A DNA stretch of 64,000 nucleotides from Planctomycetia bacterium (GTDB taxonomy: Bacteria; Planctomycetota; Phycisphaerae; Phycisphaerales; SM1A02), in assembly GCA_005787685.1 (NCBI GenBank), contig SYAC01000038.1:1-64000 (forward strand), given 5' to 3'. Position 1 is the first letter of the stretch. Every line of letters begins with the position of its first letter. Below are positions 46,661 through 57,881 of the stretch, one piece after another. A model generated the notes under the pieces. The model had not been told where the DNA came from. It made no database searches and worked only from the letters and a program-made list of their open reading frames with translations. The translations under genes were made by a program, and so were the position numbers.

Positions 46661-47227
46661 TCACCAATGCACTTGGCTGTTGTCATCCACAAGCGAGTAA
46701 AAACCTTGTCCTTCGCGGCGAAGTTTGCCCGCGTGCACCAAGGCTTCCCACACTTCCATAGGAAATTCGCGCGGGGGAATCATGGCGTCAATCTTGTGTT
46801 GCGCTCCGCCGCTCATGGGTCCAACTCCCAACTTGCTTTCGGCGTCTAACTGCGCAAACTTCACGCGCCGACGGAATATCTTCAGCGCACTCTGCATCAC
46901 GGATGCGTCCACCGCCACGGCCGCCGCCGCGGGCGCAACCACATCATCGGCAACTTCCTCTCCACGCAAGCGCGCCGCGACTCGCTTTAATTCCTTCACA
47001 TCGCGCGCGCCCACCAAACGCATAATGGCGGCGGGTTCCACCTTAGCCTTCAACAGCAATTTGTGCATGGCGCCCCAGTGCGGTCCCGCACTGGCCGCAT
47101 CGGCGCCTTCAATGGCGGCAACTTTGGCGGTGATTTCATTCAACAATGGTTGTGCAAGTGGGGGCATTCGGTTCAGCAATATAATGCCTGCGGCGCTTGG
47201 GGGATACCTGCGGTAGATTGCTTGCAT
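46661..47227 (-). CDS. Hypothetical helical protein
   Basis: From ATG 47227 this is a 188-residue protein, rich in Ala and helical throughout. Segments such as [24 protein letters not shown] and [31 protein letters not shown] near the C-terminus suggest a winged-helix-like end, but I do not recognise a family. Start choice is open: ATG 47227 overlaps the thiolase start codon on the other strand, and ATG 47167 has a cleaner upstream region. It probably shares the short A+T-rich stretch at 47175-47186 with the thiolase as a promoter region. Confidence 0.55.
47180..47185 (+). promoter_or_regulatory. TATAAT box, possible shared promoter of the thiolase and the divergent gene
   Basis: A perfect TATAAT lies at 47180-47185, 40 bp ahead of the thiolase ATG. 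The reverse strand of the same stretch reads ATTATATTG, which could serve the divergent gene from its inner start at 47167. No convincing -35 box is seen 16-18 bp upstream, so the call is tentative. Confidence 0.35.
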
Positions 47228-48431
47228 GTCCCGCAGAGTCGCCATTGTTGCAGCCATTCGAACACCCATTGGTCGTCACGGGGGCGCGCTTGCCGTGGTG
47301 CGCCCAGACGACTTGGCCGCGTATGTCATGCGCGCTGCCGTGGCGCGCGCTGGCATTGACCCCGCGCTTATTGAGGATGTGTACTTTGGCGCAACGAACC
47401 AAGCAGGCGAGGACAATCGCAATGTGGCGCGCATGGCCGCGCTGTTGGCGGGTCTTCCCCCGACCGTGGCTGGTGCAACGGTGAACCGCCTGTGCGCCTC
47501 GGGCCTTGAGGCGGTGAATCTTGCGGCGCGCATGATCGAGTCGGGCGCTGGCGACATCATGATCGCGGGTGGCGTCGAGTCCATGAGTCGCGCGCCGTAT
47601 GTAGTGAGCAAGGCCGATCAGGCTTTTGGCCGCGAGCAGCAAATGGTCGATACCACCATTGGCTGGCGCTTTGTGAATCCGCGCATGGCCGCCATGTATC
47701 CACCGATCTCGCTTGGCGAAACCGCAGAGAATGTGGCGCGCGCCCACCATGTTTCGCGCGCTGATCAAGACGCGTTCGCGCTTGCGAGCCAGCAGAAGTG
47801 GGCCGCCGCACACGCCGCTAGTCGATGGCGCGACGAGATTGCGCCAGTTGAGATTGTCCAAGGCAAGAAGCCGTCGATCATGTTTGACACCGACGAACAT
47901 CCGCGTTCGGACACCACACTTGAAAAGCTTGCCGCGCTCAAGCCCGCGTTCTCAAAGGCGACCGATGCCACGGTGACCGCTGGCAACTCATCAGGCATGA
48001 ACGATGGCGCCGCCGCGCTTGTACTTGTTGAAGCGTCACGCGCGGCCGCGCTTGGCTTAAAGCCGCTCGCCTTTGTGGGAGCATGCGCGTCGGCGGGTGT
48101 GGATCCAGCGCACATGGGCATTGGGCCTGTACCTGCGGTGAAGAAACTTTTCGCGCGCACTGGTCTTGCCGCTGGCGACATCGACTTGATTGAGTTGAAT
48201 GAGGCGTTTGCGGCGCAGTCCATTGCGTGTGTGCGCGAACTTGGCTTTGACATGGCGCGCGTGAATGTGAATGGCGGGGCGATCGCAATGGGGCATCCAC
48301 TTGGAGCAAGTGGCGCTCGTATTGTGGTCACGCTTGTCCACGAAATGCAACGGCGCAACTCCAAGCGCGGTGTGGCTTCGCTTTGTGTTGGCGTTGGGCA
48401 GGGACTTGCAACGCTGTTCGAGCGGGCGTGA
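47226..48431 (+). CDS. Acetyl-CoA C-acyltransferase (thiolase), beta-ketoadipyl-CoA thiolase-like
   Basis: A 401-residue thiolase of normal length with all catalytic residues: Cys90 ([10 protein letters not shown]), His357 ([10 protein letters not shown]) and Cys387 (SLCVGVGQG). The segment [24 protein letters not shown] is typical of the PcaF/3-oxoadipyl-CoA thiolase branch. It cleaves a 3-oxoacyl-CoA to acetyl-CoA and a shortened acyl-CoA. It points toward the CoA-transferase/KamA operon. A decayed copy of its last 150 bp lies at 53556-53709, right against the aminotransferase gene, so thiolase and operon were probably neighbours before the intervening segment arrived. Confidence 0.93.
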
Positions 48432-48509: not shown

Positions 48510-49502
48510 TTAGGCGCCAACCATCATTTGCAAAAAGAGTGCTACCACCTTGGGATCAAAGTGCGTTCCTGATTGCTGGCGCATGTGCTCCACGATCTTT
48601 TCATAAGGCCAAGCCTTGCGGTAGGGGCGATCGGATGACAACGCGTCCCACACATCGACCACGGCGAAAATACGCGAAGCCAAAGGAATTTCTTCGCCTT
48701 TGATTGCGCGTGGGTAGCCCGTGCCGTCCCAGCGTTCGTGATGGCACAAAGGAATAACAAGCGCGGGTCGCAGATATTCAATGGGCTCGAGCAACTCAAT
48801 CGCAAATTGCGGATGCTTTCGCATGATGTCCCACTCCGCTTCCGTCAGCGGACCGGGCTTGTGTAAAATATAATCGGGCACGGCCATCTTTCCAATATCG
48901 TGTAGTAAAGCGCTGCGACGCACATGAACAAGTTCATCCTCATTCATTCCCATTATGCGCGCAAGTTCAACCGTGAGTAGCGTGACACGCCGCGAATGAT
49001 CTCCTGTTTCGTTGTCTCGAAAATCCAGGGCTCGCACCCAGCCTTTGAGCGTGGCATCGTAGGCGTCCTGCAATTCATGGTGAGCCTGCAGCAAATCGGC
49101 TTGTTGCTTCATTAACTTTCGATAGCGATTCAAGCGGATGATGGTGTTGACGCGCGCGCGAATTTCCATGCGATCGATCGGTTTGGTAATAAAATCGTCG
49201 GCGCCCGCCTCAATGCCTCGGATCCGCGACACCTTGTCATCGAGCGCGGTGGTCATGACCACAGGCACATCCGCCAACAAAGGGTCCATACGAAGTCTGC
49301 GGCACACTTCAAAGCCGTCCATGACGGGCATCATGATATCAAGCAAAATAATATCGGGCTGCAAAATACTGGCTTGCTTCAGCGCGTCAAGACCGTTGTC
49401 GCAGAAGTGCAAGTTGTGACCAGATGGAGTGAGCAACGCATCCAATGTTTCACGGCCACCTGGTTCATCATCCACAATTAAAATAGTTGATGATGTAGTC
49501 AT
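48510..49502 (-). CDS. Response regulator with HD-GYP c-di-GMP phosphodiesterase output
   Basis: A 330-residue protein. A receiver domain (1-120) has the acidic pair Asp11-Asp12, the phosphate acceptor Asp55 (LLDIMMP) and Lys107 (ITKP). A helical linker leads to an HD-GYP domain with His201-Asp202 (LLHDIGKMAVPD) and the full signature HHERWDGTGYP at 254-264. Such enzymes hydrolyse cyclic di-GMP. It lies 12 bp after the HNOBA-hybrid kinase gene and is the third gene of the H-NOX operon, so it is the likely output. Confidence 0.92.
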   Translation of the reverse strand: MTTSSTILIVDDEPGGRETLDALLTPSGHNLHFCDNGLDALKQASILQPDIILLDIMMPVMDGFEVCRRLRMDPLLADVPVVMTTALDDKVSRIRGIEAGADDFITKPIDRMEIRARVNTIIRLNRYRKLMKQQADLLQAHHELQDAYDATLKGWVRALDFRDNETGDHSRRVTLLTVELARIMGMNEDELVHVRRSALLHDIGKMAVPDYILHKPGPLTEAEWDIMRKHPQFAIELLEPIEYLRPALVIPLCHHERWDGTGYPRAIKGEEIPLASRIFAVVDVWDALSSDRPYRKAWPYEKIVEHMRQQSGTHFDPKVVALFLQMMVGA

Positions 49503-49514
49503 GACGAATTTGAT

Positions 49515-51179
49515 TTAGCGCGTTTCGTCTTTGGGTAAGAGGGCATGCATAATCTTCACCAATTGTTTCATATTCACTGGCTTGCTCAGATAGTCGTTGG
49601 CGCCAGCAGCCATGCAACGTTCGCGGTCGCCCCCAATGGCGCAGGAAGTCAACGCAATGATGGGGATTTTCGCATATTGGTTGTCGGCACGCAAATGGAC
49701 GATGGCGTCAAGGCCATCCATCTGGGGCATTTGAATATCCATGAGCACCAATGAAGGAGCGTGCTGACGAGCCATTTTGACCGCCTCCAAACCATCGCGC
49801 GCCTGGATCACACGCCATTGATTCGCACGCAAATAATCAGATACCGTAATCAGGTTGATCTCATTGTCGTCGGCCACCAAGACGAGCGGAGTGTTGCTTG
49901 GAAGTATCTTGGTGGGCGAGATTTCAGAAATGGTGACAGCGCCTTTGTCGCCGCCACGAATCGCATTCTCTAAACCCTTGCCAGGAATCCGAAGGGTGAA
50001 GCAGCTGCCTTTGCCAATTTCACTTTCCACCGTCACGCTACCACCATGCAATTCGGCCAACTTCAGCACCAGGCTTAGACCAAGTCCAGTTCCCGCGTAC
50101 TGGCGGGAAAGTTTGGAATCCAATTGTGTGAAGGGACTAAAGAGTCGCTTTAAATCTTCAGTGGTAATTCCAATGCCAGTGTCCCGAACGGAGAACATAA
50201 GTGATTCACTTTCCAAATCCCACATGGTCTCCAGAGTCACGCTGCCGCCATCCGGAGTGAACTTCACTGCGTTGGAAAGCAGATTCACCAATATTTGTTT
50301 CAGGCGGCGTTCGTCGGCCATAAGCATGACGGATTTATCGTTCATAGCCAGCGTGAGATTTAAATTTTTCTTTTGCGCCTGCCCAAGAACCAATCGCAGA
50401 CTTGCTTGGCACACATCTTCCATATTGGCGTTGTTCAACTCCAATTCCATTTTGCCGGCGCCAATTTTGGCAAGGTCCAGCAAGTCGTTGATCAGAGATA
50501 AAAGGTGGCGGCCACTTTCCGCGATGGTGTTGATGGACTGGGCTTGTTTTGCGTTCATCTCGCCGTAAACGCCCTCGGCCAGCGATTCGGAAAGTCCAAG
50601 CACGGCGTTCAGTGGCGTGCGCAATTCATGGCTCATGGCCGACAAGAAATCATCCTTGGAGCGCATGACGCGCGACAGTTCGGCGTTGGCCAATGAAAGT
50701 TTAGCGGTGCGATCGGCCACGAGTTGATATAAATCTCTCTTGATTATATCGTTGGTTTGAGTCATCTGAAGCAGGTCAACAGTGGAATCATGTAGCGCAA
50801 AATCGTTCATCACCAATTGCAACAATTGCATTTGCTTGAGTGTACGCACCCATGGTGAGCCAAGAAAAAGATATCGCTCTGGGTCGCGCAAAATTATCGC
50901 TTGCAAGCGCAACGATAAATTAGATGTTGCGGATTCGAATATAAAGATTCCAGTTTGTCGACGCGATATCAATTCTGGAGTGATCCGTTTCGCGCGGTCG
51001 CTTGACAAATCAAAGAGCGAAAAGTGATCATTCAATTCCTGGCCCACGCAAAATTGTGGGCAAATGCGGGCCAACACGGCGCCAGTTTGCAACACGCGCA
51101 TGTTTGCGTCTAGTAGAAAGTGAAACGGAAACAGTTTTGAAAACTGCTCGCGGTCAATCATGAAATCTGCCTGAGTCAT
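49515..51179 (-). CDS. Hybrid histidine kinase with N-terminal HNOBA sensor-associated domain
   Basis: A 554-residue protein from ATG 51179. Residues about 12-140 are an H-NOX-associated (HNOBA) domain, as in the regulatory part of soluble guanylate cyclase: FSKLFPFHFLLDANMRVLQTG, LRDPERYLFLGSPW and NDFALHDS. Then come a coiled linker, the dimerisation domain with His184 (SAMSHELRTPLN), an ATPase domain (ILVNLLSNAVKFTPDGG, VRDTGIGI, GTGLGLSLV) and a receiver domain with Asp481 (VLMDIQMPQMDG). There is no membrane segment, so it is a cytoplasmic kinase. It overlaps the H-NOX stop by 4 bp (ATGA). Confidence 0.93.
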   Translation of the reverse strand: MTQADFMIDREQFSKLFPFHFLLDANMRVLQTGAVLARICPQFCVGQELNDHFSLFDLSSDRAKRITPELISRRQTGIFIFESATSNLSLRLQAIILRDPERYLFLGSPWVRTLKQMQLLQLVMNDFALHDSTVDLLQMTQTNDIIKRDLYQLVADRTAKLSLANAELSRVMRSKDDFLSAMSHELRTPLNAVLGLSESLAEGVYGEMNAKQAQSINTIAESGRHLLSLINDLLDLAKIGAGKMELELNNANMEDVCQASLRLVLGQAQKKNLNLTLAMNDKSVMLMADERRLKQILVNLLSNAVKFTPDGGSVTLETMWDLESESLMFSVRDTGIGITTEDLKRLFSPFTQLDSKLSRQYAGTGLGLSLVLKLAELHGGSVTVESEIGKGSCFTLRIPGKGLENAIRGGDKGAVTISEISPTKILPSNTPLVLVADDNEINLITVSDYLRANQWRVIQARDGLEAVKMARQHAPSLVLMDIQMPQMDGLDAIVHLRADNQYAKIPIIALTSCAIGGDRERCMAAGANDYLSKPVNMKQLVKIMHALLPKDETR

Positions 51180-51736
51180 TGTTTGGCCGCGTCGCCCCAA
51201 TAGACAAGAAATTCGTCATGGTCGTCGCCCTTGTCTTTGAATTTGGTCTGCGTGATTTGCGCGGGCGTGTTATACAATTTGGCAACGCCACTGAATAGAC
51301 CCCGCACAAAAACGGACAAGCCAGGGCGGTGGCTGAAGTAGTGCATGGTGATTCGATCCGCTTTCCGATTGGAACATTCAAAGCGCGGCGGTTTGAGATT
51401 TGGAAAAATAAGCGCCACGCGAATGTGAAACATTGGAAGGTATTCCAGAAACTCCGGCAAATTGCGGCCAGCGGAACTGAGCATGTCCCCGTATTCCTCT
51501 CGCGCAGTGTGCAGAATCCAAAACTCGCCAAAAGCGAACAGAATTTCGTCCGCGCTCATTCCCAGCACTTCTGTGGCCGCGCCAATCAAGCCATAGGTTA
51601 TGGAGTCGGGGTAGCTTTCATTGCTCAGGAAAACATCTTCCTTCACGCCCGCCTTTCTTTTAATGGATTCCCATTTGTCAATGCCGAATGTGGTCGTGAC
51701 AAGTGCTTGCACCGATTTATTCACCATTCCGTACAT
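51176..51736 (-). CDS. H-NOX heme nitric-oxide/oxygen sensor protein
   Basis: A 186-residue stand-alone heme sensor. It starts MYGMVNKSVQ, the classic H-NOX beginning. The proximal heme ligand is His104 in LPMFHIRVALIFPNLKPP, and the heme-propionate motif YxSxR is Tyr133-Ser135-Arg137 (HYFSHRPGL). The distal pocket around residues 70-80 is FGEFWILHTAREEYG. In known systems NO binding breaks the His-iron bond and changes the activity of the cognate kinase. GGAG lies 6 nt ahead of the ATG. It is first in the operon with the kinase and the HD-GYP protein. Confidence 0.95.
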   Translation of the reverse strand: MYGMVNKSVQALVTTTFGIDKWESIKRKAGVKEDVFLSNESYPDSITYGLIGAATEVLGMSADEILFAFGEFWILHTAREEYGDMLSSAGRNLPEFLEYLPMFHIRVALIFPNLKPPRFECSNRKADRITMHYFSHRPGLSVFVRGLFSGVAKLYNTPAQITQTKFKDKGDDHDEFLVYWGDAAKQ

Positions 51737-53711: not shown

Positions 53712-55064
53712 TCAGCCGATCTTTCTCAGTCCACTTTCCATCGCTGCCACCAGCGCGTCAATGTCTGCCTCGGTCATGGGAGTTGACAGCATGCCCGTGC
53801 ATGTGCCAACCATCAGGAAACCTTGGTCGAATAGGTGTTCAAGCATCATCTTGAGTCGGCGATTCTCATCGGCGCTGGGGTAGGCCTCGCGGTAGTTCGC
53901 TGGTACATCGGCTTTCATGTGCAGGCGAAACATGCTTCCGCCGCCAGTCACGCTGGCGCAAGCCTTGGTGCGATGGATGGCTTGCGCAATGCCATTGCGT
54001 ACGCGCTCGCCAAGCGCGTTCAAGCGCGCCACGGCGGGTTGATCAAAGTGCTCCATGGCGATTCGTCCCGCGGTCATGGTGACTGGATTTGCGGAGAATG
54101 TGCCTGACAGTGGAAAGAGAAGTTTGGCCGCGCCCGGATTGAGCACTTGCATGACATCGGCGCGACCAGCAAGCGCGCCCACTGGAAAGCCGCCGCCGAT
54201 CATCTTGCCCAGCGCGGTGAGATCGCCATGAATATCGTAACCCTGCTGCGCGCCGCCGTAGTGCGTGCGAAAGGTAATGACTTCATCCAGCACAAGAAGC
54301 GCGCCGTTCTTCACGGTCCACTCGCGCATGGCGGTCACAAACTCACGCGACGCGGGCTTTAACCCCACGCGGTGTGGCATGAGGTCAAGCAGCACGCATG
54401 CAAGTTCACCACGGTGCTCGTTCAGTAGCGCGATGGATCGATCAACATCGTTGAAAGGAATCACCACCACATCGTCCATGGCGGATTGCGGCTGACCATG
54501 CACCAGCGGCACGCGATTTGGATGATCAACAGCGCCCCAGTTGGCGGGCGATGAGCCCTGGCTGGTTTCCACATAGTCGTAGGCGCCGTGGTATGCACCT
54601 TCCACTTTGGCAATCTTGGGGCGACCAGTGAACGCGCGCGCGGCTTTCAGCGCGGCCATGACGGCTTCGGTGCCGGAATTCACAAATCGAATTTGGTCAA
54701 AGCCATCGCTGCGCGAGCACAGGTGCTCCGCATGCAGAACTTCCTGCTCGGTGGCCATCATGAAGGCGCTCCCGAGCGCAAGTTGCGCCGAGGCAGCTTC
54801 CACAATGGGCGCGTACGCGTGTCCGTGGATCAGTGAAGCGACATTGTTGGCAAAGTCGATGCGCGTAACTCCGTCTATGTCGGTGACGCGGCAGCCTTTT
54901 CCATACGCCACATAGGGGGGAACCGATGACCAAAGCACGGTATTGCGGCTGACACCGCCGGGCATGACCCTTTTGGCGCGCGCAAAAAGTTCCGCGCTGT
55001 GGCTCGTTGTGGGAGTCGCTACTTCTTTGGCCGAGTTGGTTGCCATGTTCATTTCCTTTTTCAT
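53712..55064 (-). CDS. Class III aminotransferase, HemL/beta-transaminase-like
   Basis: A 450-residue fold-type I PLP enzyme. The PLP lysine is Lys287 (LTALGKMIGGGFPVGALAG), the PLP-pyridine Asp260 is in LLVLDEV, and SGTEAVMAALKAARAFTGRPKI and GAYHGAYD form the phosphate and ring contacts. It looks like glutamate-1-semialdehyde aminomutase, but beta-amino-acid transaminases (for example beta-phenylalanine aminotransferase) have the same plan, including MPGGVSR and SGTF..N..TM.AG. Given its operon with an aminomutase and a CoA-transferase, I favour conversion of a beta-amino acid to a beta-keto acid over heme synthesis. It overlaps the CoA-transferase beta gene by 4 bp. Confidence 0.85.
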   Translation of the reverse strand: MKKEMNMATNSAKEVATPTTSHSAELFARAKRVMPGGVSRNTVLWSSVPPYVAYGKGCRVTDIDGVTRIDFANNVASLIHGHAYAPIVEAASAQLALGSAFMMATEQEVLHAEHLCSRSDGFDQIRFVNSGTEAVMAALKAARAFTGRPKIAKVEGAYHGAYDYVETSQGSSPANWGAVDHPNRVPLVHGQPQSAMDDVVVIPFNDVDRSIALLNEHRGELACVLLDLMPHRVGLKPASREFVTAMREWTVKNGALLVLDEVITFRTHYGGAQQGYDIHGDLTALGKMIGGGFPVGALAGRADVMQVLNPGAAKLLFPLSGTFSANPVTMTAGRIAMEHFDQPAVARLNALGERVRNGIAQAIHRTKACASVTGGGSMFRLHMKADVPANYREAYPSADENRRLKMMLEHLFDQGFLMVGTCTGMLSTPMTEADIDALVAAMESGLRKIG

Positions 55065-55732
55065 TTGCTTGCCTCAAGTGCAAGGTTGATGATCGGCGCG
55101 CCAGTGCGCTCTTGCACAAACTCAAATGATAGGCCAGGCGCCAGTTGCACAAGAGCAAATCCGCGCGCAGTCACATCAATGACCGCCAAGTCCGAGTAAA
55201 TACGAGTCACAACGCCGCGGCCAGTGAGCGGATAGGAGCAGCTTGGAACAAGCTTTGGCTCGCCTTCCTTGGTGACATGCGTTGTCATGACAAACACTCG
55301 CTTCACGCCAGCAACTAAATCCATTGCGCCGCCCACGGCGGGAATGGCGTCGTCAGCGCCGGTTGACCAATTGGCCAGATCGCCGTTGGCGGCAACTTGC
55401 AGAGCGCCCAACACTGAAAGATCAAGATGCCCGCCGCGAATCATGGCGAAACTTGTGGCTTGGTCAAAGAACGCGGCGCCAGGCATCATGGTCACGCGGC
55501 GTTTCCCCGCGTTGATGAGTTCGGGATCACCTTGGTCCGCGGCGGGTGATGGACCCATGCCAAGCAGTCCGTTCTCGGTGTGATAGATAAATGTTCGCCC
55601 CTGGGGCACATGTCGTGCGACAAGTTCGGGAATGCCAATTCCAAGATTCACATAGGAACCGTTGGGTATGTCCTGCGCAACACGCTGCGCGATTTCGTCG
55701 CGTGTCCAACCGATGGAAGTGGCAACGCTCAT
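55061..55732 (-). CDS. scoB: 3-oxoacid CoA-transferase subunit B
   Basis: A 223-residue beta subunit of a family I CoA-transferase (ScoB/AtoA/PcaJ type). The catalytic glutamate is Glu53 in HTENGLLGMGP; NLGIGIPELVARHVPQG and GGAMDLVAG are family marks. With subunit A it moves CoA from a donor such as succinyl-CoA to a 3-oxo acid. Both ends overlap neighbouring genes by 4 bp, so it is coupled to subunit A upstream and to the aminotransferase downstream. Substrate cannot be read from sequence. Confidence 0.92.
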   Translation of the reverse strand: MSVATSIGWTRDEIAQRVAQDIPNGSYVNLGIGIPELVARHVPQGRTFIYHTENGLLGMGPSPAADQGDPELINAGKRRVTMMPGAAFFDQATSFAMIRGGHLDLSVLGALQVAANGDLANWSTGADDAIPAVGGAMDLVAGVKRVFVMTTHVTKEGEPKLVPSCSYPLTGRGVVTRIYSDLAVIDVTARGFALVQLAPGLSFEFVQERTGAPIINLALEASK

Positions 55733-56439
55733 GGGTAACTTGCTCCAACTTCGTTGAGCGCGGATTCAAGCGCCGGCGACGGCACATGCACCACTCGATC
55801 CACAAAGATGCCGGGGGTGACAATCCCCTCTGGATCAAGTTCGCCGGCTTCAACAACTTGGGCCACTTGCACAATGGTCACGGTGGCGGCGGTGGCCATC
55901 ATGGGCGCGAAGTTTCGCGCGGTGCGGTGGTACAGAACATTGCCGTGCGTGTCGGATACGCGGCCTTTGATCAGCGTGAAGTCGGCGCGAATGCCCAGCT
56001 CTAGCACATGTTCGCGGCCGTCGAACACGCGCGACTCTTTGCCTTGCGCCAGCGGCGTGCCCACCGCGGTCGGCGTGTAAAACCCCACAATTCCAGCGCC
56101 ACCAGCGCGGATGCGCTCGGCTAGTGTTCCTTGCGGTACAAGTTCAAGCTCTATTTTTCCAGCGCGATACAGATCAGGGAACACGGTTGAGCCTGCGGTT
56201 TTAGGAAACGAGCAGATGATCTTGCTGACACGCTGCGCGCGCAGAAGCGCGGCAAGTCCAACCAGGCCAGTGCCCGAGTTGTTGCTCACGACCGTCAAGT
56301 TTTTCGCGCCCTGATCAATCAGGGCATGAATGAGCTCGATTGGACTTCCCGCTTCGCCAAAGCCACCGATCATGACAGTGGCGCCATCGGAGATGTCGGC
56401 GACCGCCTCGCGGGCGCTACCAACGCGCTTGTCGATCAT
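55729..56439 (-). CDS. scoA: 3-oxoacid CoA-transferase subunit A
   Basis: A 236-residue alpha subunit of a family I CoA-transferase (ScoA/AtoD/PcaI type). The CoA-binding glycine-rich motif is GGFGEAGSP near residue 25, followed by NLTVVSNNSGTG and the VPQGTLAERIRAGGAGI.GFYTPTAVGT segment typical of this subunit. It overlaps KamA by 4 bp upstream and subunit B by 4 bp downstream. Confidence 0.92.
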   Translation of the reverse strand: MIDKRVGSAREAVADISDGATVMIGGFGEAGSPIELIHALIDQGAKNLTVVSNNSGTGLVGLAALLRAQRVSKIICSFPKTAGSTVFPDLYRAGKIELELVPQGTLAERIRAGGAGIVGFYTPTAVGTPLAQGKESRVFDGREHVLELGIRADFTLIKGRVSDTHGNVLYHRTARNFAPMMATAATVTIVQVAQVVEAGELDPEGIVTPGIFVDRVVHVPSPALESALNEVGASYP

Positions 56440-57881
56440 CGGCAGGATGGTGTTGGTGCTGCCGCGTGGGTCACACGCGCGCTCTTCACGCGTGAGTAAT
56501 CAAAGAGACCTGCCTCGTCATAGAGCACGCGATCGGCGAACCCGTCGAACCACAACGCCTCTGGATTGCGGCCCACAATGCAAATCTTGCCTTTGTCTTT
56601 GGCGGAGCCGGCGTTGCGCAGAATCTTGAATATGACCACGCCGTTCTCGCTGCCCTTGAGTCCGGGGATAGGGTGGTCGGTGACAGCGCAGACTTCGGTC
56701 TTGCCCTTGTAGTGGGTAATGGAAAGTCGTGCGTGGCTTTCAACGCCAGACAATCCCTTCTGCGATTCATTGAGGATTTGCCACACGCGTTCAATCGGTG
56801 CATTGAAGGCGCGGTAGGCAATGATGTCGCGACCACAGAAGAAGTAGTGGTTCTCGCCGCCAGCACGCTTGAATTCGCGTTGCAAAATGCGAAGTGCGTC
56901 GGCATCATCGTTGATTCCCTTCATGATTGGCGTTTGGTTCTCAACGCTTAACCAACCGCGCGACACAAGGCGACGCATGGCGGCACCAGTGACGGGAACC
57001 CACTGCAAAAAGCCTTGCGCGTTGTGGATGTACTTGCCGTCGGCGTCCTTGGCAAGAAATTCATCGGGGTGTTCAAAGTGAACCACAATATGCAAACCAA
57101 CTTCGGGATATGTCTGGTGGAAGTTGTCAAGCATCGCGACAAATGCGTCGTCAAATCGCTCAGGATAAAATGCCATTTCCTTGGTGCCGATGCGGATCGA
57201 CTCAACACCCGCCTCCGCAAGCGCGCCCAGCCACGCCGCGATCTTTGAATTGTTCAGCACCATGGGATCGCCGCCCGACATGAGTATCTCGCGCAATTTT
57301 TCACGGCCACAGGTTGGGTGGTGTCCGCCATTGGCGGCAACTTCCGCGTTAAAGCGTTTGATATATGCGACCACCTCTGGAATGGTCGCCATGCCCTTCT
57401 TGGCAACAGTGCCGTCTTGACGCGTAATTTCCTTGCGCGCGATCAGTTCCTCGCGGTAGCAGAAGCGGCAGTGCGCCGAGCAGGTGGAGACAACATAAAG
57501 AAGACCCATTTCATACTTGTGCAACATGCCTTCAACTGGGCTGTAGTCCATTTGAAAGCCGGGGTCCTCAGAGCCAGCCAGGTCCATGGTTTCGGAGGGG
57601 TCCGCCTTCACAATGCGGCGAATAGGCGCGCTCTGTTTGGCAAGTTCAAAATAATGGCGCGTCATCTTCACTGGCATGCGCTTTTCAAGATCGCGATCCG
57701 TTCCCTTCAGGACACGCAATTGCACAAGTTCGGTTGATGAGTAAAGACCAAGCATGTCGGCGGGGGCTTTTTCATCAAGGAATGGCGCAAGACCGTTGAT
57801 AATGTTGCGCTCGTGGCGGGAATCTTGAACTTTGTCCAAGAAGGACTGCTGACGTTCGGTGGTGGCATACTCGGTAGACAT
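56436..57881 (-). CDS. KamA-family radical SAM aminomutase (lysine 2,3-aminomutase-like)
   Basis: A 481-residue radical SAM enzyme. The cluster motif is Cys134-x3-Cys138-x2-Cys141 (CSAHCRFCYREE), with LMSGGDPMVLNN, SIRIGTKEMAFYPERF and QTPIMKGINDD in the order seen in KamA. KamA enzymes use PLP and an adenosyl radical to shift an alpha-amino group to the beta position. Two features differ from classic KamA: the PLP-lysine motif PGGGGK is replaced by HYKGK (Lys392/394), and the substrate segment CDLSxGxxHFR is here FCGRDIIAYRAF. The substrate may therefore not be lysine. AAGGA precedes the ATG. It is first of four coupled genes. Confidence 0.85.
   Translation of the reverse strand: MSTEYATTERQQSFLDKVQDSRHERNIINGLAPFLDEKAPADMLGLYSSTELVQLRVLKGTDRDLEKRMPVKMTRHYFELAKQSAPIRRIVKADPSETMDLAGSEDPGFQMDYSPVEGMLHKYEMGLLYVVSTCSAHCRFCYREELIARKEITRQDGTVAKKGMATIPEVVAYIKRFNAEVAANGGHHPTCGREKLREILMSGGDPMVLNNSKIAAWLGALAEAGVESIRIGTKEMAFYPERFDDAFVAMLDNFHQTYPEVGLHIVVHFEHPDEFLAKDADGKYIHNAQGFLQWVPVTGAAMRRLVSRGWLSVENQTPIMKGINDDADALRILQREFKRAGGENHYFFCGRDIIAYRAFNAPIERVWQILNESQKGLSGVESHARLSITHYKGKTEVCAVTDHPIPGLKGSENGVVIFKILRNAGSAKDKGKICIVGRNPEALWFDGFADRVLYDEAGLFDYSRVKSARVTHAAAPTPSCR

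What the first reader, a model, noticed from the sequence alone, without database searches (positions are those of the whole stretch)
53712..57881. Coupled operon for a beta-amino-acid route: aminomutase, CoA-transferase A/B, transaminase
Four genes are joined by three ATGA overlaps, so their products probably work together. A logical series is alpha-amino acid to beta-amino acid (KamA type), to beta-keto acid (beta-transaminase type), to beta-ketoacyl-CoA (ScoAB), to acetyl-CoA plus a shortened acyl-CoA (the thiolase at 47226). With lysine the products would be 4-aminobutyryl-CoA and acetyl-CoA. This differs from the clostridial lysine route (KamDE, Kdd, Kce, Kal), of which no gene is here.
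Basis: partly seen in the sequence, partly recalled or inferred. Interest (0 to 1): 0.75.

Follow-up and report, generated by a model that had tools for sequence, protein, structure and literature searches.

The report
Amino-acid-to-β-keto-acid degradation gene set
A conserved set of five bacterial genes looks able to turn an acidic amino acid, most likely 2-aminoadipate rather than lysine, into the β-keto acid 3-oxoadipate and then into succinyl-CoA and acetyl-CoA; I know of no description of such a route.

Summary
On the minus strand (53712-57881) lie a KamA-type radical-SAM aminomutase, CoA-transferase A and B, and a class III aminotransferase, joined by three ATGA overlaps. The four genes keep this order in 63 of 64 related loci with room, and a PcaF-like thiolase follows, convergent, in 51 of 60. 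The window's thiolase at 47226 is its orthologue, here 5.3 kb away. All 83 KamA rows have Arg and Ser where lysine 2,3-aminomutase has two lysine-binding Asp, and AblB was found in 0 of 41 genomes. EF-P and heme roles are unlikely. CoA-transferase and thiolase resemble PcaIJ and PcaF most. Best reading: L-2-aminoadipate to 3-aminoadipate to 3-oxoadipate to 3-oxoadipyl-CoA to succinyl-CoA plus acetyl-CoA. Glutamate is the main rival. No gene supplying 2-aminoadipate was found, two CoA-transferases from likely 3-oxoadipate clusters fall outside the PcaI group, and no structure model could be made, so the substrate remains an inference.

The parts
56436..57881 (-). KamA-type radical-SAM, PLP-dependent aminomutase (481 aa). 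Cluster Cys134/Cys138/Cys141, Arg143 (α-carboxylate), Lys394 (PLP); Arg351 and Ser387 stand where lysine 2,3-aminomutase has its two lysine-binding Asp
   Evidence: the roles of the residues in 2A5H are recalled except the two Asp
55729..56439 (-). CoA-transferase subunit A, PcaI-like (236 aa)
55061..55732 (-). CoA-transferase subunit B, PcaJ-like (223 aa)
53712..55064 (-). class III aminotransferase, HemL-like in sequence, related to β-transaminases (450 aa); Lys287 is taken as the PLP lysine and Arg40 lies in a PGGxSR motif (assignments recalled; each present in at least 97% of 65 rows)
47226..48431 (+). PcaF-like thiolase (401 aa), orthologue of the thiolase that directly follows the cassette, convergent, in 51 of 60 related loci

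Best explanation
The cassette encodes a route for an acidic α-amino acid, most likely L-2-aminoadipate. KamA moves the amino group from C2 to C3 (radical SAM and PLP), giving 3-aminoadipate. The aminotransferase removes it, giving 3-oxoadipate. The PcaIJ-like CoA-transferase makes 3-oxoadipyl-CoA at the cost of succinyl-CoA. The PcaF-like thiolase splits it to succinyl-CoA and acetyl-CoA, which regenerates the CoA donor. If the aminotransferase works on the CoA ester, as Kat does, steps two and three swap. Shown by sequence: the gene set, its conservation, the catalytic residues of the aminomutase, loss of the lysine-binding Asp pair, and likeness of the lower enzymes to PcaIJ and PcaF. Inferred: the substrate, the order of steps two and three, the CoA donor, and the catabolic direction.
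For: Four genes in order in 63 of 64 loci, thiolase convergent in 51 of 60. Among 41 genomes, KamA of at least 74% identity is in 12 (two of them in fragments) and the aminotransferase of at least 64% in 13; in the extra one, G008, the aminotransferase match starts at base 2 of a contig. Cys, Arg143 and Lys394 kept and Arg351/Ser387 in 83 of 83 rows. Glutamate 2,3-aminomutases have Lys and Asn at these two places (PMC3965090, passages read), so a basic residue there fits an acidic side chain. CoA-transferase A is 53-62% identical to six PcaI genes of pcaIJF operons, 40% to AtoD and 50% to one near a 3-hydroxybutyrate dehydrogenase gene, and groups with PcaI (19-row fork 95/94, 18-row fork 85/75). 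The thiolase's three best NCBIfam models are 3-oxoadipyl-CoA thiolases (552, 549, 487 bits; next 459); it is 55-57% identical to six pcaF genes and 46% to a partial AtoB. Intradiol dioxygenase was found in 0 of 13 cassette genomes and 6 of the other 28. On a Mesorhizobium plasmid KamA (63%) and the aminotransferase (61%) sit with a ferredoxin and a CoA-transferase subunit whose best solved relative is glutaconate CoA-transferase, a dicarboxylate enzyme (recalled).
Against: No source of 2-aminoadipate was found. Lysine 6-aminotransferase is over cut-off in 1 of 41 genomes (G017, with cassette); the two next best (G019, G022) lack the cassette. The saccharopine-dehydrogenase C domain is in 10 of 13 genomes with and 18 of 28 without the cassette. 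A motif screen of flanking ORFs found no aldehyde dehydrogenase, without a positive control. In the CoA-transferase tree, L140 (beside maleylacetate reductase) and L129 (in a catechol cluster), both likely 3-oxoadipate enzymes, fall outside the PcaI group, and L136, of unknown substrate, falls inside; no Bacillus or human SCOT rows were included. The best solved relatives of the A subunit are named succinyl-CoA:3-ketoacid CoA-transferases (3cdk, 3rrl). The thiolase misses the PcaF cut-offs (549 against 597), its best solved relative is 1ulq, a putative acetyl-CoA acetyltransferase, with PcaF third, and its tree leaves the fork open. Most genomes without the cassette (22 of 28) also lack the dioxygenase, so one search is weak. 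Arg is long and might suit glutamate better. Nine of 60 loci lack the thiolase beside the cassette, and the annotated Mesorhizobium stretch shows none. No structure model could be obtained.
Confidence: 0.37

Rival explanations
1. Glutamate route. KamA is a glutamate 2,3-aminomutase of a separate branch: glutamate to 3-aminoglutarate (β-glutamate) to 3-oxoglutarate. This is then thiolysed as a CoA ester to malonyl-CoA and acetyl-CoA, or loses CO2 to acetoacetate and goes through acetoacetyl-CoA to two acetyl-CoA.
For: Arg351/Ser387 resemble the Lys/Asn pair of glutamate 2,3-aminomutase. Glutamate needs no supply pathway. The CoA-transferase subunit of the Mesorhizobium cassette is nearest to glutaconate CoA-transferase, whose substrates have five carbons (recalled). 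The best solved relatives of the A subunit are named succinyl-CoA:3-ketoacid CoA-transferases, which would fit the acetoacetate branch.
Against: CoA-transferase and thiolase resemble the six-carbon PcaIJ/PcaF enzymes most. KamA is far below the glutamate 2,3-aminomutase model (76 bits against 650), and the glutamate-like L102 falls with the lysine enzymes. A simpler way to use glutamate exists.
Confidence: 0.24
2. Lysine route: lysine to β-lysine to 3-oxo-6-aminohexanoate to its CoA ester to 4-aminobutyryl-CoA and acetyl-CoA.
For: KamA belongs to the lysine 2,3-aminomutase superfamily. In B. subtilis kamA (BSU19690) and the aminotransferase gene yodT (BSU19740) have near locus numbers; that CoA-transferase and acetyltransferase genes lie between them is recalled.
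Against: Both lysine-binding Asp are lost in 83 of 83 rows. AblB, which acetylates β-lysine's 6-amino group in the known aerobic route (recalled), was found in 0 of 41 genomes; unprotected 3-oxo-6-aminohexanoate should cyclise (chemical inference).
Confidence: 0.08
3. Kat-like order: the CoA-transferase acts first on the β-amino acid and the aminotransferase then works on the β-aminoacyl-CoA. This is a variant of either route above, so its odds cut across theirs.
For: Gene order KamA, CoA-transferase, aminotransferase is colinear with it. Kat is HemL-like, its gene lies with a thiolase gene, and of the donors tested only thioesters reacted (PMC3149608; opening text and sections 7-9 read).
Against: The window's aminotransferase was not compared with Kat, because no Kat sequence was at hand. 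Nothing in the names of its best solved relatives (6k8h, ForI, GSA-aminotransferases) points to CoA esters.
Confidence: 0.35
4. KamA modifies EF-P, or the aminotransferase makes 5-aminolevulinate for heme.
For: KamA and EpmB share a superfamily; the aminotransferase's best NCBIfam models are HemL-type.
Against: HemB 0 of 16 in the genus with controls ringing in 11 of 14; aminotransferase 318-321 bits against HemL cut-offs of 398-527; tight linkage to CoA-transferase and thiolase; the three EpmB-like rows keep Asp/Glu and fall on the other side of the tree.
Confidence: 0.03

Closest known systems
Lysine 2,3-aminomutase (KamA/AblA; PDB 2A5H)
   Same: CxxxCxxC cluster motif, Arg that binds the α-carboxylate (recalled), PLP lysine
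   Different: Asp293/Asp330 are Arg/Ser; 24% identity to the lysine-type planctomycete row L098 (there L121); separated in the tree at 100/100; scores 72 against a cut-off of 525
Glutamate 2,3-aminomutase
   Same: a basic plus a polar residue in place of the two Asp
   Different: Arg/Ser instead of Lys/Asn; 76 bits against a cut-off of 650; the one glutamate-like row (L102) falls with the lysine enzymes
Lower β-ketoadipate pathway, PcaIJ and PcaF
   Same: nearest relatives of the CoA-transferase and thiolase with a named setting among those examined
   Different: here linked to an aminomutase and an aminotransferase, not to ring cleavage; intradiol dioxygenase in 0 of 13 cassette genomes
Bacillus kam/yod locus and the Pseudomonas B4 β-lysine pathway
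   Same: aminomutase with an aminotransferase (and, recalled, CoA-transferase)
   Different: those go through N6-acetyl-β-lysine (recalled); AblB in 0 of 41 genomes here
Kat, 3-aminobutyryl-CoA aminotransferase of Candidatus Cloacamonas acidaminovorans
   Same: HemL-like aminotransferase with a thiolase gene in amino-acid breakdown
   Different: belongs to a lysine fermentation with KamDE, Kdd and Kce (PMC3149608); no sequence comparison made

Membership tests
Lysine 2,3-aminomutase | CxxxCxxC, α-carboxylate Arg and PLP Lys | tested here: met
   83 of 83 rows
Lysine 2,3-aminomutase | two Asp binding lysine (293 and 330 of 2A5H) | tested here: not met
   Arg and Ser in 83 of 83 rows
Lysine 2,3-aminomutase | NCBIfam TIGR03820 cut-off | tested here: not met
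   72.1 against 525.4
Glutamate 2,3-aminomutase | Lys and Asn at the two Asp places | tested here: not met
   Arg and Ser; rule from PMC3965090, passages
Glutamate 2,3-aminomutase | NCBIfam TIGR04368 cut-off | tested here: not met
   75.7 against 650
EpmB | NCBIfam TIGR03821 cut-off | tested here: not met
   74.3 against 369.3
HemL (GSA aminotransferase) | TIGR00713 cut-off and a heme pathway | tested here: not met
   318 against 527; HemB 0 of 16
PcaIJ 3-oxoadipate CoA-transferase | TIGR02429/TIGR02428 (mixed pca/sco models) | tested here: met
   342 against 128.5; 292 against 243.6
PcaIJ 3-oxoadipate CoA-transferase | groups with PcaI apart from other CoA-transferases | tested here: inconclusive
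   groups with eight pca/cat rows and L122 (19-row fork 95/94, 18-row fork 85/75), apart from AtoD; but L140 and L129 from likely 3-oxoadipate clusters fall outside and L136 inside; no Bacillus or human SCOT rows
PcaF 3-oxoadipyl-CoA thiolase | TIGR02430 cut-off | tested here: not met
   548.7 against 597, though 3-oxoadipyl-CoA thiolase models score best
PcaF 3-oxoadipyl-CoA thiolase | tree position with PcaF | tested here: inconclusive
   open fork
N6-acetyl-β-lysine route | AblB acetyltransferase | tested here: not met
   0 of 41 genomes; controls rang in 5 of 14
Clostridial lysine fermentation | KamD | tested here: inconclusive
   0 of 41, but no control rang
Clostridial lysine fermentation | KamE, Kdd, Kce, Kal | not tested
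   no search made
Kat | acts on CoA esters | not testable with these tools
   needs an enzyme assay

The most novel reading that the evidence does not exclude
A radical-SAM 2-aminoadipate 2,3-aminomutase, on a separate Arg branch of the KamA superfamily, feeds amino-acid carbon into the β-ketoadipate pathway: a junction between lysine-type and aromatic catabolism that yields succinyl-CoA and acetyl-CoA without the glutaryl-CoA route. It occurs in bins labelled Planctomycetota and Verrucomicrobiota and, with another CoA-transferase, on a rhizobial plasmid.
Probability: 0.35. Interest if true: 0.75.

Novelty: new variant of a known kind. Interest (0 to 1): 0.6.

Why it matters
If right, a branch of proteins that are annotated as lysine 2,3-aminomutase or resemble it has another substrate, and there is an undescribed way to break down an acidic amino acid through a β-amino acid. 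The prediction is sharp (3-aminoadipate and 3-oxoadipate as intermediates) and can be tested with five purified enzymes. It would also warn against reading KamA-type genes in environmental genomes as lysine degradation.

Tried and rejected
Lysine as substrate: rejected on the lost Asp pair and AblB not found. Heme and EF-P roles: rejected. Genes supplying 2-aminoadipate: looked for and not found in step with the cassette (saccharopine-dehydrogenase C domain; lysine 6-aminotransferase; aldehyde dehydrogenase motifs in 954 greedy ORFs of L016-L095, no positive control). Neighbours of the Verrucomicrobia-labelled loci: nine tested, not informative (Dam-like, Vsr, permease, esterase-like, three without a hit). 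Neighbours of other Arg-branch KamA genes: one beside ThiF, others unclear. KamD search: silent controls, so no conclusion. Structure prediction: never ran. Thiolase tree: does not resolve PcaF; row L137 lies on an extreme branch and was given no weight, and AtoB was partial. HemB was searched in the genus only.

Literature: searches (10 of 10). No listed title or abstract joined an aminomutase with 3-oxoadipate, but several lists were capped (25 of 102, 15 of 343, 12 of 15, 25 of 190, 12 of 171). Searches found no paper with all their terms. One search found two papers with a 3-aminoadipic or β-aminoadipic term: one on a meteorite (listing only) and one where the term is in a reference title (passage read). 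One search found one rumen metagenome paper (listing only). The library holds open-licence papers only. Passages of PMC9105233 and PMC11284099 were read and gave nothing decisive.
Full report
What is there. The minus strand of 53712-57881 holds four ORFs, in order of transcription KamA (481 aa), CoA-transferase A (236 aa), CoA-transferase B (223 aa) and a class III aminotransferase (450 aa). Each junction is an ATGA overlap. The window lies on contig 30 of a 2.37 Mb draft genome of 65 contigs, 91% complete. Most loci with near relatives of KamA are titled Phycisphaerales or other Planctomycetota bins.

More than chance. A scan of one genome per species gave 164 relatives of KamA, of which the best 80 were kept (L016-L095; 71-93% identity). 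As far as their contigs reach, all carry the neighbours, in L068 in several pieces. With at least 2.8 kb after KamA, 63 of 64 have all four genes in order on one strand; L095 has them too, but with an insertion between the two CoA-transferase genes. Four loci are in bins labelled Spartobacteria, Chthoniobacterales or Verrucomicrobiota (L044, L045, L087, L095). Among 41 genomes (the window's and 40 relatives), KamA of at least 74% identity is in 12 (G004 and G010 in fragments) and the aminotransferase of at least 64% in 13. The thirteenth, G008, has the aminotransferase at the very start of a contig. In the class, 7 of 120 genomes at least 90% complete, the window's among them, carry this KamA at E up to 1e-100.

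The fifth gene. In 51 of the 60 loci with room, a thiolase (over 55% identity) lies convergent 10-181 bp behind the aminotransferase. The window's thiolase at 47226-48431 is 93% identical to the one in L020 and has the same relative orientation. In the window the two are parted by about 5.3 kb: a response regulator with HD domain, a hybrid histidine kinase, an H-NOX gene, and about 2 kb where three ORFs tested had no Pfam hit. The nine loci without an adjacent thiolase are L040, L044, L045, L060, L061, L062, L069, L080 and L095; in L044 and L080 it is 4.8 and 1.5 kb away. A divergent RpiR-family regulator stands before KamA in 38 of 70 loci; in the window a sugar-transporter-type gene is next instead.

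The aminomutase is not a lysine enzyme by its residues. Numbering was taken from the printed 2A5H alignment. Cys125/129/132, Arg134 and Lys337 are kept in 83 of 83 rows (window, 80 loci, L009 and L010; many are close kin). Asp293 is Arg (Arg351) and Asp330 is Ser (Ser387) in all 83. Lysine-type planctomycete rows (L098-L101, L103, L105) have Asp/Asp, EpmB-like rows (L106, L107, L109) Asp/Glu, and the glutamate-like L102 Lys/Thr. A tree of 24 rows (root for drawing only) splits an Arg group of 12 rows from the rest at 100/100. The Arg group also holds the Mesorhizobium protein, a Sinorhizobium protein, a Mycetohabitans protein and L013, L014 and L015. The SFLD paper (PMC3965090, passages read) says that the two Asp bind lysine and that Lys and Asn replace them in glutamate 2,3-aminomutases. 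By analogy Arg plus Ser suits a side-chain carboxylate. This is inference; no model or structure supports the geometry.

The lower half points to 3-oxoadipate. A tblastn of CoA-transferase A found 598 plasmid records, of which 60 spread down the ranking were listed; I looked at the setting of 16 of these and of three thiolase hits. Six A subunits lie in pcaI-pcaJ-pcaF operons and are 53-62% identical to the window's; the closest of all, Pseudosulfitobacter at 65%, has no thiolase beside it; two in catC clusters are 58 and 62%; AtoD is 40%, and one about 3 kb from a 3-hydroxybutyrate dehydrogenase gene 50%. In a 27-row tree the cassette rows fall with these pca/cat rows (19-row fork 95/94; inner 18-row fork 85/75), apart from AtoD. 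Against a simple reading, L140 (beside maleylacetate reductase) and L129 (in a catechol cluster) are likely 3-oxoadipate enzymes but fall outside, and L136, of unknown substrate, falls inside. The best solved relatives of the A subunit are named succinyl-CoA:3-ketoacid CoA-transferases. The thiolase's three best NCBIfam models are 3-oxoadipyl-CoA thiolases (552, 549, 487 bits; cut-offs 605, 597, 622, not reached); the general thiolase model gives 459. Among solved structures its best match is 1ulq, a putative acetyl-CoA acetyltransferase, then an unnamed thiolase, then PcaF (463, 459, 453 bits). It is 55-57% identical to six pcaF genes, 60% to a Deinococcus thiolase next to a single-chain CoA-transferase, 52% to the one of L140, and 46% to a partial AtoB; the tree leaves the fork open. 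Intradiol dioxygenases, a usual source of 3-oxoadipate (recalled), were found in 0 of 13 cassette genomes and in 6 of the other 28; the numbers are small.

An independent arrangement. On a Mesorhizobium sp. 113-3-3 plasmid, KamA (63%, with the same Arg and Ser) is followed by a ferredoxin, the aminotransferase (61%) and a different CoA-transferase. The best solved relative of its B subunit is glutaconate CoA-transferase (1poi, E 1.8e-32). The A subunit there is unannotated; by eye its frame breaks near the end, and its family was not searched. No thiolase is among the 19 annotated features of the stretch, though that gene table is incomplete. If functional, the CoA-transfer step was kept while its enzyme family changed, which supports the chemistry. 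A ferredoxin fits a radical SAM enzyme. Glutaconate CoA-transferase also fits a five-carbon substrate, which favours glutamate.

Mechanism. Most likely: L-2-aminoadipate, by KamA, to 3-aminoadipate; by the aminotransferase to 3-oxoadipate; by CoA-transferase with succinyl-CoA to 3-oxoadipyl-CoA; by thiolase to succinyl-CoA and acetyl-CoA. The scheme regenerates its own CoA donor. The aminotransferase may instead act on the CoA ester, as Kat does (PMC3149608; opening text and sections 7-9 read). Its best solved relatives are 6k8h, ForI and GSA-aminotransferases, with β-transaminases lower in the list. Arg40, Lys287 and other polar residues are kept in at least 97% of 65 rows.

What speaks against it. 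I found no gene that would supply 2-aminoadipate in step with the cassette. Lysine 6-aminotransferase is over cut-off only in G017, which has the cassette; G019 and G022 come close and lack it. The saccharopine-dehydrogenase C domain is in 10 of 13 genomes with and 18 of 28 without the cassette. A motif screen found no aldehyde dehydrogenase near. Glutamate needs no supply, and Arg351 could suit a shorter substrate than aminoadipate. I put 0.37 on aminoadipate, 0.24 on glutamate and 0.08 on lysine; the step-order variant (0.35) cuts across these. On rechecking I moved aminoadipate down from 0.40 and glutamate up from 0.22, because of L140, L129 and the PDB rankings.

Heme: HemB is in 0 of 16 genus members, with controls ringing in 11 of 14, and no HemL passes cut-off in the window's genome. 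EF-P: KamA is far below the EpmB cut-off and on the other side of the tree from EpmB-like rows. The N6-acetylated β-lysine route: AblB 0 of 41, controls ringing in 5 of 14. KamD: none found, but no control rang; KamE, Kdd, Kce and Kal were not searched.

Known or new. The parts are known families. I found no description of the combination or of the Arg group in the lists seen (several lists capped, open-licence papers only). The B. subtilis survey (PMC6522883, passages) says KamA makes β-lysine in vitro and that its physiological role is undetermined. The B. thuringiensis paper (PMC4428206, passages) places a σ54-controlled kamA locus in lysine metabolism. That those loci hold CoA-transferase and acetyltransferase genes, and the Pseudomonas B4 pathway, are recalled.

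Noticed in passing
window 48510-51736: An H-NOX gene, a hybrid histidine kinase and a response regulator with an HD domain sit between the thiolase and the cassette, where 51 of 60 related loci have 10-181 bp. HemB was found in 0 of 16 genomes of the genus, so a heme-binding sensor stands in a lineage that may not make heme by the usual path.
   Followed up: partly
L110:14986-19837: Mesorhizobium plasmid copy of the cassette with a ferredoxin and a glutaconate-CoA-transferase-like B subunit; the A subunit is unannotated and by eye its frame breaks near the end.
   Followed up: partly
L044:7252-8487, L045:7370-8602, L087:4317-5585, L095:7390-8628: All four Verrucomicrobia-labelled loci have another thiolase-like gene on the opposite strand before KamA; only that of L044 was scanned (Thiolase_C_1 type), the rest were clustered with it.
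   Followed up: partly
L013, L014, L015, L141:4953-6032, L142:4635-6014: Other members of the Arg group of KamA outside the cassette: one is beside a ThiF-type gene, the Sinorhizobium one near two genes annotated as biotin-carboxylase-like and a lysine-type aminomutase. Their substrates are open.
   Followed up: partly
L095:11212-14059: Insertion between CoA-transferase A and B with a weakly Dam-like gene; a Vsr-type endonuclease gene follows the aminotransferase.
   Followed up: no
L102:1165-2592: A planctomycete aminomutase with Lys at the Asp293 place and Thr at the Asp330 place, glutamate 2,3-aminomutase-like.
   Followed up: no
G010:C57:1734-3154: KamA matched in two pieces, one with a stop inside, so the cassette may be decaying or misassembled in that genome.
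   Followed up: no
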